DNA from: Phycisphaerales bacterium
GTDB lineage: Bacteria; Planctomycetota; Phycisphaerae; Sedimentisphaerales; Anaerobacaceae
NCBI GenBank assembly: GCA_030602885.1
Contig: JAUVYV010000013.1
Coordinates: 1 to 64,000, forward strand
Length of the DNA stretch: 64,000 bases
Direction: 5' to 3'
In this document: positions 59,951 through 64,000 of the stretch, piece by piece
Layout: every line of letters starts with the position of its first letter
Position numbering within the stretch: position 1 is the first letter of the stretch
Position numbers and translations under genes: made by a program
Notes under the pieces: generated by a model
What the model saw: the letters and a program-made list of their open reading frames with translations, nothing else
Told to the model about the DNA's origin: nothing
Databases searched by the model: none

Positions 59951-60703
59951 CTACCGATCGCCCGCAAATTCGATGTTGCTCTGATAAAGAACATCCAGCT
60001 CGTCCCTGCTTTCGTTAAGACCGTTCTGAACGCTCTCTATCTCCGCCCGCGAAAGCGATATCTGCCCCTGAATCCCCGTCAGCTCACCCTGTACTGTCTC
60101 TAAGTTGCGCCTCGCCTCGCTCAGCGAATCGCTAATCCTTTCCACCTCCGCCCTCGAAATGTTAATCTGGCTCTGAATCCGCGCAAGCTCCGCCCTCGCC
60201 GCCGCAAGCTCGCTCTGCACCGTCTCAGCATTCGCCGTAACGCCAACAACGTCGTCATATTTCGTCTGAAGCGTCGTATAATCTCTGTTGAGATTCTCAA
60301 GCGCCATCCTCGTATCTACATAAAGCCACAAAGCCGCACACACTCCCGCCGCCAGCAAAAACACCGCTGCAACCGCGCTCACACTCCAGCGGCCCTTCAC
60401 CTCCACCTTCGCTAATCCCGCACCCGCCTTCGGCCTCTTAGCTTCCTCGTCACTAATACCCGATGGTCTAAGCGCCACATCCACAACGAATTTCTGGCCC
60501 TTGAACTTTCGTATCTGAACAACGCCGATCTGTCCCTGCTTCTCGACAATATCGCTTGAAAGACCCTCCCTCGCTGCGTACTCATCTAAAGGCACAAGTG
60601 ACCGCTTGAATTGCGATCTCGGCTCCGCCCCTTGCGTAGCCGTATCTGCCCCGTCGCTCTTCACTTGCCGTCTCTCGTCCGAATTGTCCCGCCGACCATC
60701 CAT
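59951..60703 (-). CDS. Single-pass membrane coiled-coil protein
   Basis: 250 residues. An N-terminal soluble part ending in a segment with an excisionase-like look (LVPLDEYAAREGLSSDIVEK, then IGVVQIRKFKGQKFVVD), a hydrophobic helix (VSAVAAVFLLAAGVCAALWLY) near 105-130, and a C-terminal 110-residue coiled coil with near-repeats (ISRAEVERISDSLSEARRNL, ISLSRAEIESVQNGLNESRD). Role unknown; a scaffold or envelope-linking function is a guess. Confidence 0.75.
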   Translation of the reverse strand: MDGRRDNSDERRQVKSDGADTATQGAEPRSQFKRSLVPLDEYAAREGLSSDIVEKQGQIGVVQIRKFKGQKFVVDVALRPSGISDEEAKRPKAGAGLAKVEVKGRWSVSAVAAVFLLAAGVCAALWLYVDTRMALENLNRDYTTLQTKYDDVVGVTANAETVQSELAAARAELARIQSQINISRAEVERISDSLSEARRNLETVQGELTGIQGQISLSRAEIESVQNGLNESRDELDVLYQSNIEFAGDR

Positions 60704-61145
60704 ACTCTTTGCATTACGCCCGATACCAACTCTCCAAAACTAAACCGCTACAATCTACCAATCGCCGACGTACAATGCCAGCAAAATTCTCATTTTTCCA
60801 ACACGCCTCTCTGTCATCCCGCCTGTCCTGAGCCCGTCGTAAGGAACCGAATCGTAAATCGTAAATCGAAAATCGTAAATTAACAGCCCCCACCCCTGTG
60901 GTGGCGGTCCGCACCCGCTTCTATCGGACCTTCACAAAAAATCAATACCACCCCTCCGCGTTATTCCTTGCACACTTTTTCCAGCACTGCATCAACGACA
61001 ACTTTCAGGGTTTTCTCGTATAACTTCCAAAAGAAATTACCTGCCCTGCGTGCCGCTGCTCACTTTGAACCAGCCGCCTTGGTCAATGCATCTGCGACAG
61101 CGACCTTCCAAGAGTCATAGTGAAAGCCTAACTGGCGCTGTAGTA
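60704..61145. repeat. Repeat-bearing intergenic region with AATCGTA tandem
   Basis: AATCGTA is repeated four times at 60850-60877 (third copy AATCGAA), next to CCTGTCCTGAGCCCGTCGT-like material, again typical of dispersed junk. Farther right, minus-strand frames (FHYDSWKVAVADALTK, then after a TGA NFFWKLYEKTLKVVVDAV) look like remains of a gene. Confidence 0.5.
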
Positions 61146-61280
61146 CTATTGACCTTTGCAAAAGTAAAGGAACGAGCCTGTGTGAAACTCTGCTCCGTAC
61201 TTAAGATATTTTATAGTTTTATTGGCATATACTTCGGGTACGTCCCGAACTTTGCCGCAATATAGACATTGAACTCTCAT
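61146..61280 (-). pseudogene. 44-codon Cys-x-x-Cys ORF, head of a decayed gene
   Basis: Starts with ATG at 61280 and reads V-Q-C-L-Y-C-G-K at the N-terminus, a half zinc ribbon, then stops at TAG 61146-61148. Downstream on the minus strand two blocks resume in another frame with an internal TGA (FHYDSWKVAVADALTK and NFFWKLYEKTLKVVVDAV). Taken together this looks like one gene broken by a frameshift and a stop. A real short protein is possible. Confidence 0.4.
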
Positions 61281-61328
61281 TTTCTCAACCCCTATTCCAA
61301 ACAAAGGCGCTAAAAGCTAACGACTCAA

Positions 61329-62606
61329 TCATTTTTCCAGTGCGATTAAGTCTTCGTATGCTTCGCGTTTTCTTATTACCTTGAAGTTGCTGCCGTCCAC
61401 AAGTACCTCGGCGACTCGGCCTCGGGCGTTGTAGTTGCTGCTCATCGTAAAGCCGTATGCCCCGGCGGTGAAGATGCCGAGCAAATCGCCTCTTTTGGTC
61501 GGCGGCATCGGCCTGTCTTTTGCGAAGAAGTCGGCACTTTCACAAATTGGCCCCACGACATCGACTACCTCGGTGCCTGGAAGTCGGAGGTCTTTTTCCC
61601 GGCGGGCCGGGATGTGCCGGCCATCGACTTTCACAGGCCAAATGAAGTGGAAGGCGTCGTAGAGCGGCGGCCTGATAAGATCGTTCATACCCGCATCGAC
61701 TATGACGAACTTTTTTCCGCCGCCGGTTTTGACGTAGAGAACTTTCGTAAGCAGTATCGCTGCGTTGGCGGCGATGCTTGCTCCGGGTTCGAGAATGAGC
61801 TTGAGGTCCTTGTCTTTTATCATCGGGACTATGGCGGCGGCATACTCGGCGGCAGTCGGAGACTGAGAAGTAACGTAGTCGGCGCCGTATCCGCCGCCGA
61901 GGTCAAGCGCCTCTATCCTGAAACCGCTGTTGCGCAGGCGGTCGATCAACGCGAGCGTCTTGTCCACTGCCTCGACGTAGGGCTCAACGGTGTGGCCGGC
62001 CGAGCCGAGATGTACGTGGATAGCGCACAGTTCGACTGTTTTGTTCTTCCCGAATTCGGCGAAAACACGTTCGGCCCGCTCAATATCGACACCGAATTTC
62101 GTTTCCTTTTTGCCCGTGGTTGTATAAGTGTGTGTCTTCGGGTCAACATCGGGGTTCACTCGCAGCGCCGCTTTGGGTCTCTTGCCGTGCTGGTCAGCCA
62201 GTTCGATGAGGTTCTCAAGCTCGGCCTCGGACTCGATATTGAAATAAGCGATGCCGGCGTCTAATGCCTCGATGATTTCCCTGTTCGTTTTTCCAACACC
62301 GGCGTAAACAACCTTGGAGACATCACCGCCGGCCTGCTGGACGCGATATAGCTCGCCGCCACTGACGATGTCGAACCCGCTGCCCGCTTCCGCCATAAAC
62401 TTGAGAATGTTGATATTGCTGCACGCCTTGACCGAGTAGCACACGGTGGTATCGACCTCGCTGTAGGCCTGGCGGACCTTGCGCAGGTGCTCAAGGAAAG
62501 TGGCTTTGCTGTAAATGTAAACCGCAGTGCCGACCTCGTTGGCTATTTGTTCGACGTCGACGCCTTCGGCGAAGAGTCTGCCGTTTGTGTAAGTGAAATA
62601 GTCCAT
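61329..62606 (-). CDS. lysA: Diaminopimelate decarboxylase
   Basis: 425 residues, PLP fold type III. Pyridoxal Lys in CYSVKACSNINILKF, HVHLGSAG, LDLGGGYG, LEPGASIAANAAILLTKV and the C-terminal CESADFFAKDR with the substrate Cys. It forms lysine from meso-diaminopimelate. The promoter at 62674-62701 fits its start. Confidence 0.96.
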   Translation of the reverse strand: MDYFTYTNGRLFAEGVDVEQIANEVGTAVYIYSKATFLEHLRKVRQAYSEVDTTVCYSVKACSNINILKFMAEAGSGFDIVSGGELYRVQQAGGDVSKVVYAGVGKTNREIIEALDAGIAYFNIESEAELENLIELADQHGKRPKAALRVNPDVDPKTHTYTTTGKKETKFGVDIERAERVFAEFGKNKTVELCAIHVHLGSAGHTVEPYVEAVDKTLALIDRLRNSGFRIEALDLGGGYGADYVTSQSPTAAEYAAAIVPMIKDKDLKLILEPGASIAANAAILLTKVLYVKTGGGKKFVIVDAGMNDLIRPPLYDAFHFIWPVKVDGRHIPARREKDLRLPGTEVVDVVGPICESADFFAKDRPMPPTKRGDLLGIFTAGAYGFTMSSNYNARGRVAEVLVDGSNFKVIRKREAYEDLIALEK

Positions 62607-62673
62607 ATTGGTTACCTGTCGAAGATAGTAACTCCCACGGCTGATTTGGCCGCGTCAGCCGGTGCAGTCGGAC

Positions 62674-62701
62674 AGTATAGAAGACTGGAAGCAAATTGCA
62701 A
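62674..62701 (-). promoter_or_regulatory. Candidate promoter for lysA
   Basis: On the minus strand TTGCAA (62701-62696), 16 bases, then TATACT (62679-62674). Confidence 0.5.
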
Positions 62702-62730
62702 GCAATGCGTGCTTTAGAACCCCCAAAATG

Positions 62731-62765
62731 AAAAAGGAAGGTTCTCAAACGAAAACCTTCCTTCT
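62731..62765 (-). terminator. Terminator after the lysine-rich miniprotein gene
   Basis: GGAAGGTT at 62736-62743 pairs with AACCTTCC at 62754-62761. Reading the minus strand, a TTTTT tract follows (62735-62731). Confidence 0.7.
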
Positions 62766-62796
62766 TCGTGTTTTTGCCTTCACCTAAGGTGCTGTG

Positions 62797-62898
62797 CTAT
62801 TTTTTCTTCTTGGCCTTTTTCTTCTTCTTGGCTTTCTTCTTGGTTTTCTTCTTCGTCACTTTTCTCTTTTTCTTTGCTGCTTTCTTCTTCTTTGCCAT
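62797..62898 (-). CDS. 33-residue lysine-rich protein (histone-tail-like)
   Basis: Minus-strand ATG at 62898, TAG at 62797-62799. The product consists almost wholly of Lys with Ala, Thr, one Val and two Arg/Thr positions (start A-K-K-K-K-A-A-K-K-K-R). AAGGAG lies 8 bases before the ATG and a terminator follows the stop, so it is a separate expressed unit. It resembles C-terminal tails of H1-like and other nucleoid proteins. DNA binding is inferred from charge only. Confidence 0.75.
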   Translation of the reverse strand: MAKKKKAAKKKRKVTKKKTKKKAKKKKKAKKKK

Positions 62899-63173
62899 AT
62901 TCTGATCTCCTTATTGGCTTTGTGAAATCCTTTCACCAAAACACTAATTAACTTTTGAAAGTTTCGTCATTCATAATTCAAAGAAGCTAACGACCATGTT
63001 ATAATTTTTATCGTCCATAAATTAAGAAATACTTCATAAAAACTTGCGTCGCAGCAGTCTTACACGCGTTGTCGTATGGCATGAGAACAAATTCGGCCGG
63101 ACGCTTATTGCTTATGCGTTCTTGATTTCCTTTTTTCTTTGTTGGAAAATGTTGTTGATGTTTTGCCTGAGAC
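62899..63173. other. Intergenic gap upstream of the lysine-rich gene and nadD
   Basis: AT-rich, no gene accepted. A 70-codon plus frame (63044-63256) is Cys/Phe/Tyr-rich and has no ribosome site. It should hold the minus-strand promoter of the lysine-rich gene; only a weak TATAAC is seen near 63000. Confidence 0.35.
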
Positions 63174-63202
63174 TTTACAACGTGCGTAAGAGGTGGTATT
63201 CT
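63174..63202 (+). promoter_or_regulatory. Candidate extended -10 promoter upstream of nadD
   Basis: TTTACA at 63174-63179, 17 bases, TATTCT at 63197-63202, with TGG just before it (extended -10). The leader to nadD would be about 230 bases. Confidence 0.55.
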
Positions 63203-63441
63203 TATAAATGCGTTTCTTTAAGGCCACAGGCCTGTTTCGCGGCTCTCTGGGTGTGAGCACAATGGTTGAGTCTGTCAATGTTATGTTTGTCGATGGCTGT
63301 TTGAGATTGGAGACAAGAGAAATAAAGATGTCACCATGTGGGTCTGTATATTGCCTGTGACGGGAGTTTTTGAGGTAAGAATTTTTTTTCTTTTTTAGAA
63401 AAATTTTTTGCAGAAATTTACAATTCTGCTGTTAGTTGTTT
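63203..63441 (+). other. Long transcribed leader of nadD
   Basis: GGCCACAGGCC near 63221 forms a small stem, and GCAGAA...TTCTGC at 63411-63430 another. Two long T-runs lie between. It could be an untranslated leader or a small RNA; nothing diagnostic was seen. Confidence 0.3.
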
Positions 63442-64000
63442 ATGGCGAAGATGAAGATAGCTCTGTTCGGAGGAACCTTTGACCCGATTCACATCGGGCA
63501 TACAATTGTTGCGGATGCTGCTTGTGAAAGTATCGGCGCGGAGAAAGTTGTCTTCATTCCGGCGAAGCGTTCGCCTCTGAAGCATCTGTTTCCACATGCA
63601 AGTGACGAAGATAGATATGCGATGACAGCACTTGCTGTCTCGGACAACGAGAAGTCTGCGGTTAGTGATTATGAGCTGAAGAAGTCACAGCCGAGCTATA
63701 CGCTGGAGACGGTGCGATATTTTCAGGGGCACTATGGCAGTAATGCATCACTTCACTGGCTTGTCGGCGCCGACGGCGTGGACGATTTGCCGCACTGGTA
63801 TGGGATAGTCGAGCTGCTTGACGAGTGCAATTTGTCGGTGATGTATCGTGGGGGTTTTGAAAGGCCTGATTTTGCGAAGTTTGTCGGGCTGTGGGGCGGC
63901 GAGCGTCTTGCGAAGCTGGAACGCAATGTTATCAAGACGCCCTTGATTGAAACAAGCAGCACGGAAATCCGCAGCAGGATCGCCGCTGGTCAGTCGATTA
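63442..64000 (+). CDS. nadD: Nicotinate-nucleotide adenylyltransferase (3' end cut by window edge)
   Basis: 186 complete codons from the ATG at 63442, open at the right edge. ALFGGTFDPIHIGHTIVA is the nucleotidyltransferase signature (T/HxGH), and VFIPAKRSPLK, LVGADGVDDLPHWY and SSTEIRSRIAAG are NadD-specific. It makes deamido-NAD from nicotinate mononucleotide and ATP. No ribosome site is visible before the ATG. Confidence 0.94.
   Translation, partial: MAKMKIALFGGTFDPIHIGHTIVADAACESIGAEKVVFIPAKRSPLKHLFPHASDEDRYAMTALAVSDNEKSAVSDYELKKSQPSYTLETVRYFQGHYGSNASLHWLVGADGVDDLPHWYGIVELLDECNLSVMYRGGFERPDFAKFVGLWGGERLAKLERNVIKTPLIETSSTEIRSRIAAGQSI

What the first reader, a model, noticed from the sequence alone, without database searches (positions are those of the whole stretch)
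62797..62898. A 33-residue, nearly all-lysine protein with its own terminator
A perfect ribosome site, an ATG, 32 codons dominated by AAG/AAA, a stop and an intrinsic terminator make a complete gene that automated callers skip. A free-standing tail-like peptide of this charge would bind DNA or RNA tightly.
Basis: partly seen in the sequence, partly recalled or inferred. Interest (0 to 1): 0.6.

Follow-up and report, generated by a model that had tools for sequence, protein, structure and literature searches.

The report
Conserved lysine-only mini-protein in planctomycetes
A tiny bacterial gene that encodes almost nothing but lysine is real and conserved across an order of planctomycetes, and it looks like a free-standing, separately switched version of the charged tails that chromatin proteins use to grip DNA.

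Summary
On the minus strand (62898..62797) a 33-codon ORF (23 Lys, 1 Arg, no acidic residue) has a Shine-Dalgarno site and is followed by a strong hairpin. It is a real gene. The same ORF lies between divergent nadD and lysA in 28 of 29 family loci; the 29th has only 214 nt of upstream sequence. It also lies beside nadD in 13 of 22 order-mates outside the family. Start (MAK), Shine-Dalgarno and hairpin are conserved, but length is not: 12 to 149 residues.

Flagellin promoters in the same genomes use an 11-nt spacer.

I tested a lysine leader peptide for lysA and largely reject it: lysA has its own promoter beyond the hairpin and is not the neighbour in other families. The same tail starts histone-fold, HU and HTH proteins in relatives. 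Best reading: a tail-only, histone-H1/Hc2-like polycation under an alternative sigma factor. DNA binding and expression are untested.

The parts
62797..62898 (-). Lysine-rich mini-gene (33 aa, stop TAG)
   Evidence: positional counterpart in 28 of 29 family loci and in 13 of 22 non-family nadD loci
62907..62912 (-). Shine-Dalgarno AAGGAG; in relatives extended up to 13 nt of complementarity to the 16S tail
63008..63036 (-). Promoter-like element TGAAGTAT-N13-GACGATAA, about 110 nt upstream of the start codon
   Evidence: the only match in the genome at up to 3 mismatches
62730..62767 (-). Terminator hairpin, 17-bp stem, T-rich 3' arm
   Evidence: counterpart after all 28 family genes
62674..62701 (-). 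Separate sigma70-like promoter of lysA, TTGCAA-N16-TATACT, downstream of the hairpin (neighbour, not part of the gene)
   Evidence: 22 of 28 family loci at 9 or more of 12; shuffled mean 1.8
61329..62606 (-). lysA, diaminopimelate decarboxylase (neighbour)
   Evidence: Pfam PF02784 and PF00278
63442..63999 (+). nadD, nicotinate-nucleotide adenylyltransferase, divergent neighbour, runs off the window
   Evidence: Pfam PF01467; linkage kept in other families

Best explanation
A real monocistronic gene for a disordered, almost purely lysine polycation: a free-standing version of the lysine-rich tails of chromatin proteins. Shown: conserved position, start, Shine-Dalgarno, hairpin, promoter-like element, composition, and re-use of the same tail on DNA-binding domains. 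Inferred: (1) an alternative sigma factor of the FliA/WhiG type, or a relative with a longer spacer, switches it on under some condition; (2) the exceptional Shine-Dalgarno gives a burst of peptide; (3) the peptide neutralises the DNA backbone and condenses or shields the nucleoid, as H1 C-terminal tails and chlamydial Hc2 do; (4) total charge matters rather than a fold, so length can drift by repeat gain and loss.
For: 28 of 29 family loci carry it with hairpins after all 28. Over those 28 genes: 725 Lys of 1134 residues and one acidic residue; aligned codons differ mostly at third positions (2639 against 643 and 1100), with more synonymous than non-synonymous changes (2131 against 1512). The gene stays next to nadD in families f2, f3, f4 (2 of 5 genomes), f6 and f7 while the downstream gene changes. 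Promoter-like element in 46 of 51 at a spacer of 13. Shine-Dalgarno pairing: median -17.9 kcal/mol against -5.6 (lysA) and -7.7 (flagellin). The same tail begins proteins with a histone fold (PDB 9qt0, E 1e-21), an HU fold (PF00216, 5.5e-8) and an HTH-like domain. FliA/WhiG-type sigma over the cut-off in 57 of 60 relatives including the own genome. Parallel in the same superphylum (grouping recalled): chlamydial Hc2 is lysine-rich, varies in length by repeats (PMC2848022, passages), and its gene is one of only two sigma28 targets (PMC12282069, passages).
Against: No transcript, peptide or binding datum. The shortest counterpart is 12 residues (L228), hard to see as a DNA-packaging protein. The element's 13-nt spacer differs from the 11 nt of flagellin promoters in the same genomes, so the sigma assignment is open. 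Family f5 genomes have the sigma; K genes found elsewhere in two of them (L105, L107) lack the element. The element pattern was derived from part of the same loci; strict hits in the 12 loci not used to derive it are 4 of 12. The pattern used to find tails selects for MAK starts, so fusions are enriched by design.
Confidence: 0.55

Rival explanations
1. The polycation serves another polyanion: ribosomes or RNA (like tiny basic ribosomal proteins), polyphosphate granules (as AlgP) or polyamine-like charge balance, rather than chromatin.
For: Charge alone does not choose the partner. AlgP's lysine-rich, H1-like tail is needed for spacing of polyphosphate granules (PMC9239181, passages). Very short members (12 to 16 aa) look more like polyamines than packaging proteins. 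A burst-type Shine-Dalgarno fits an abundant counter-ion.
Against: The same tail is found on DNA-binding domains. A ribosomal protein would keep its length; this one varies 12 to 149 aa.
Confidence: 0.27
2. Lysine-sensing leader peptide: ribosome stalling on Lys codons controls the hairpin and so lysA, a lysine attenuator.
For: Lys-codon run, then a hairpin, then lysA on the same strand in all 28 family loci that carry the ORF: the anatomy of an attenuator.
Against: lysA has its own conserved promoter after the hairpin (22 of 28, shuffled mean 1.8). In other families the gene stays with nadD but the downstream gene is not lysA, and 0 of 21 non-family lysA loci have it (one has only 144 nt upstream). 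The hairpin lies 10 to 157 nt from the stop and lengths of 19 to 94 aa fit no fixed stall geometry.
Confidence: 0.04
3. The act of translation or the RNA is what matters: a super-strong Shine-Dalgarno plus Lys runs that load, hold or titrate ribosomes or Lys-tRNA, with the peptide a by-product.
For: Near-complete anti-Shine-Dalgarno complementarity (13 nt in eight loci), lysine runs, very short members.
Against: Amino-acid choice is conserved (K, A, T, V, one acidic residue in 1134) while AAA and AAG interchange freely (337 and 388). The same tail is fused to folded domains in genes without the element.
Confidence: 0.1
4. Not a gene: a purine-rich DNA tract that happens to be open.
For: Low complexity.
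Against: Start, frame, Shine-Dalgarno, hairpin and upstream element all conserved around the ORF; third-position-biased differences.
Confidence: 0.02

Closest known systems
Chlamydial histone-H1-like protein Hc2 (hctB)
   Same: Lysine-rich repeats of A, V, T and P with basic residues, no folded core (recalled); length varies by repeats; transcribed by sigma28 with a very small regulon (PMC2848022, PMC12282069: passages read)
   Different: Hc2 is 165-237 aa with K and R pentamers; here 12-149 aa, K almost alone, MAKKK start, a 13-nt spacer in the promoter-like element, no Pfam match
AlgP / PhaF C-terminal tails
   Same: Disordered lysine/alanine H1-like repeat that binds DNA (PMC9239181, passages)
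   Different: There a domain of a larger protein with KPAA repeats; here the whole protein
Bacterial FtF histones with basic N-terminal tails (HLp, PDB 9qt0)
   Same: [quoted passage not shown] in this order MAKKK tails sit on such folds
   Different: The finding has the tail without the fold and its own promoter-like element
Amino-acid leader peptides (trpL, hisL type; recalled)
   Same: Short ORF rich in one residue, hairpin, biosynthetic gene downstream
   Different: Own promoter for lysA; not linked to lysA elsewhere

Membership tests
Hc2 (histone H1-like) | Match to a family profile | tested here: not met
   0 Pfam families for the window peptide and for the 94- and 144-aa relatives
Hc2 (histone H1-like) | Lysine-rich repeat, almost no acidic residues, length variation | tested here: met
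Hc2 (histone H1-like) | sigma28 promoter | tested here: inconclusive
   -10-like GNCGATAA and -35-like TNAAG present, spacer 13 not 11
Hc2 (histone H1-like) | Binds DNA | not testable with these tools
   needs a binding assay
Bacterial (FtF) histone | Histone fold | tested here: not met
   33 residues, tail only; the fold is present in separate genes of relatives
Lysine leader peptide / attenuator of lysA | Only promoter lies upstream of the leader, so the hairpin controls lysA | tested here: not met
   separate TTGCAA-N16-TATACT promoter-like site in 22 of 28 loci
Lysine leader peptide / attenuator of lysA | Linkage to lysine genes in relatives | tested here: not met
   kept inside the family, but 0 of 21 non-family lysA loci; linked to nadD instead
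Rfam lysine riboswitch or other RNA family | Match at gathering score | tested here: not met
   0 matches in 60000-64000
sigma28 (FliA) promoter | TNAAG..-N11-NNCGATAA as at flagellin genes of the same clade | tested here: not met
   flagellin 18 of 26 at 11 nt and 0 at 13; K genes 46 of 51 at 13 nt and 0 at 11

The most novel reading that the evidence does not exclude
A tail-only chromatin gene: an order-wide, separately regulated polylysine peptide, interchangeable in kind with the basic tails of histones, HU and other DNA-binding proteins, that a sigma28-like switch (with its own 13-nt spacer class) releases in bulk to compact or protect the nucleoid, with charge dose rather than fold or length under selection.
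Probability: 0.35. Interest if true: 0.75.

Novelty: new variant of a known kind. Interest (0 to 1): 0.58.

Why it matters
Histone tails and H1/Hc2-type polycations are usually treated as parts of larger proteins. Here one clade keeps the tail as a gene of its own, down to 12 codons, with a dedicated promoter-like element and one of the strongest Shine-Dalgarno sites one can have, while its length drifts more than tenfold. It is a clean test of whether bare charge is enough to organise a bacterial nucleoid. It shows how positional conservation can rescue low-complexity mini-genes that profile libraries miss, and the 11- against 13-nt spacer contrast makes sigma-factor specificity in planctomycetes directly testable.

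Tried and rejected
Lysine attenuator for lysA: looked compelling from the family loci alone, rejected after the nadD-linked loci of other families and the lysA promoter count. Rfam: nothing. Pfam and NCBIfam for the peptide: nothing. Protein search with lysine-rich queries is insensitive: one search missed K genes known to be in G051, G055, G040 and G037, so absence of the gene in G038, G043 and G047 beyond the nadD locus is not shown. The DNA pattern misses the window's own gene, so 56 of 161 and 66 of 397 genomes are not prevalences, and many of those matches are tails of longer proteins. Automatic flagellin start finding failed and was redone by position; 4 of 30 fetched flagellin loci were dropped because the expected N-terminus was not recognised at the expected place. 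Three family genomes looked at through nadD (L223-L225) gave no K gene in the short sequence left on the contig; L223 ends at the element itself. Structure prediction was not run: a lysine homopolymer gives no useful model. Literature searches that found no description of this gene in the held library.

Full report
What is there. The ORF of the finding lies on the minus strand, 62898..62797: 33 residues, 23 of them lysine, one arginine, no acidic residue. AAGGAG precedes it at 62912..62907. A hairpin with a 17-bp stem (62767..62730) follows the stop by about 30 nt; the 101-nt stretch folds better than all 200 shuffles, z -4.2. The neighbours are lysA (61329..62606, same strand, downstream) and nadD (63442 onward, divergent). 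The window belongs to a 3.2-Mb, 98% complete assembly; relatives are Planctomycetota, class Phycisphaerae, order Sedimentisphaerales, judged from record titles of contigs with matching lengths.

It is a gene. I searched LysA in 60 relatives and read upstream of it in 50 loci: 29 of the window's family (f1) and 21 of other families of the order. 28 of the 29 family loci have a lysine-rich ORF upstream of lysA; in the 29th (L040) the contig ends 214 nt upstream. The nadD gene is seen on the far side in 27 of these 28 (in L014 the contig ends first). None of the 21 other loci has the ORF there (one, L024, has only 144 nt). All 28 ORFs are followed by a hairpin with a T-rich tail 10 to 157 nt after the stop, -13 to -25 kcal/mol by my scan. 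The 28 proteins are 19 to 94 residues long and together hold 725 lysines in 1134 residues and a single acidic one. AAA and AAG are used 337 and 388 times, and aligned codons differ chiefly at the third position: 2639 against 643 and 1100 differences at positions 3, 1 and 2. This is an all-against-all count over related sequences and a simple codon alignment, so it is indicative only.

It travels with nadD, not lysA. In families f2 and f7 a lysine-rich gene is also divergent from nadD, while the gene beyond it differs. Starting from nadD in 27 genomes (25 found; 22 non-family loci), 13 of 22 have the K gene beside nadD: f2, f3, f6, f7 and two f4 genomes. It is missing there in three f4 genomes (G038, G043, G047) and six f5 genomes. 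In two f5 genomes a K gene stands elsewhere (L105, L107). Over 51 nadD- or lysA-linked genes the length runs from 12 (L228) to 149 residues (L244).

Upstream element. Alignment of the nadD-K intergenic regions shows one strongly conserved block, TNAAG[TA]AT-N13-G[ACT]CGATAA, 58 to 140 nt before the start codon. In the window it is 63036..63008. With a loose pattern it occurs in 46 of 51 loci at a spacer of exactly 13 (2 at 12, none at 8-11 or 14-17); the strict form is in 37 of 51; shuffled upstream sequences gave none. The pattern was drawn from part of the same loci; in the 12 loci fetched later the strict form is in 4. A version close to the consensus was found 23 times in 161 genomes of the order. 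19 of these lie at loci I could tie to nadD, lysA or the K gene, two were not fetched (G092, G140), and two look unrelated by sequence (G027 C416, G023 C21). In the own genome it is unique at up to 3 mismatches.

Which sigma factor? The -10-like half recalls the sigma28/FliA/WhiG class (recalled consensus TAAAGTTT-N11-GCCGATAA). Flagellin promoters of the same relatives serve as an internal yardstick: 18 of 26 have the same half-sites at a spacer of 11, 2 at 12, none at 13 (loci). So the K gene has a related but distinct promoter class, if it is a promoter. FliA/WhiG-type sigma factors exceed the family cut-off in 57 of 60 relatives, including the own genome, which has no detectable flagellin. 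The three genomes without one (G038, G043, G047) also lack the K gene at nadD, but they are one family and this is at most one or two events. Among eight family genomes without flagellin and with a readable region, seven keep the element, so it is not a flagellar relic.

Translation signal. Complementarity to the 16S tail (tail sequence recalled) has a median run of 11 nt and up to 13 in the 51 K genes, against 4 for 48 lysA genes and 6 for 26 flagellin genes; median duplex energies are -17.9, -5.6 and -7.7 kcal/mol. The window's own copy, AAGGAG(A), is one of the weaker ones.

Attenuator test. Lysine codons, hairpin, lysA: the order of parts invites a lysine attenuator. But between the hairpin and lysA there is a conserved promoter-like site TTGCAA-N16-TATACT (22 of 28 loci at 9 or more matches of 12; shuffled mean 1.8, maximum 6; window 62701..62674), the linkage breaks outside the family, and hairpin distance and peptide length vary widely. 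I put it at 0.04.

Tail-only chromatin protein. A pattern for MAKKK starts with a Shine-Dalgarno, run over 161 order genomes and 397 class genomes (56 and 66 genomes with a match, not a prevalence), returned both stand-alone lysine peptides (15 to 144 aa) and the same tail in front of folded domains. These are a histone fold (L093 matches PDB 9qt0, HLp of Leptospira perolatii, E 1e-21, and 8cmp and 8fvx at about 1e-3), an HU fold (L140, PF00216, E 5.5e-8), and a short HTH-like domain, also present in the own genome (L004; only sub-threshold Pfam hits for its relative L117). These fusions do not carry the element. The re-use of one tail on several DNA-binding modules is the best evidence that the bare tail also acts on DNA. 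A strong-Shine-Dalgarno form of the gene, scanned over 84,980 species genomes, gave 32 stretches: the titles are Planctomycetota or groups within it except two Omnitrophota, one Patescibacteria and two titled only 'bacterium'.

Known relatives. Chlamydial Hc2 is the closest in kind: lysine-rich, repeat-length-variable (PMC2848022, passages), and one of only two sigma28 targets (PMC12282069, passages). AlgP shows that such tails may also serve polyphosphate granules (PMC9239181, passages). Charged N-terminal tails are known on bacterial FtF histones, which occur also in Planctomycetota (PMC11390915 and PMC12701072, passages). I found no description of a tail-only gene in the held library, which is no proof of absence.

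Verdict. The gene is real (about 0.97). Its most likely role is a chromatin-directed polycation (0.55); another polyanion is the main rival (0.27). Expression, binding and the sigma factor remain to be shown.

Noticed in passing
L248 4082-5885 (own genome, contig 128): A FliA/WhiG-type sigma gene sits next to a MinD/FlhG-like ATPase gene (name by its GKGGVGKT motif, recalled) although no flagellin was detected in this genome: a flagellar-type sigma kept without flagellin.
   Followed up: partly
L193-L222 upstream of flagellin genes: Flagellin promoters of the order use half-sites like the K element but with an 11-nt spacer, against 13 nt at K genes.
   Followed up: yes
L004 3069-3326 (own genome, contig 69): Small protein with the same lysine tail followed by a short HTH-like domain; relatives L062, L067, L085, L117, L121, L123.
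   Followed up: partly
L093, L096, L098, L100, L101, L103, L106, L108, L113, L114: Bacterial histone-fold proteins with variable lysine tails, in families f5 and f7 of the order (L093 matched to PDB 9qt0).
   Followed up: partly
L139-L141: HU-family proteins with an N-terminal lysine tail in another family of the class.
   Followed up: partly
L005 456-1976 (own genome, contig 102): Phosphomannomutase with a lysine-rich C-terminal tail, a charged tail on a metabolic enzyme.
   Followed up: no
L257 1492-3126 (own genome, contig 118): Large protein with an N-terminal lysine-rich tail (MVKKAKKKVAKKRVAKKKGKKKVTKKK...), function not identified.
   Followed up: no
window 62674-62701: Conserved lysA promoter-like site with TTGCAA rather than TTGACA in most of the family.
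   Followed up: partly
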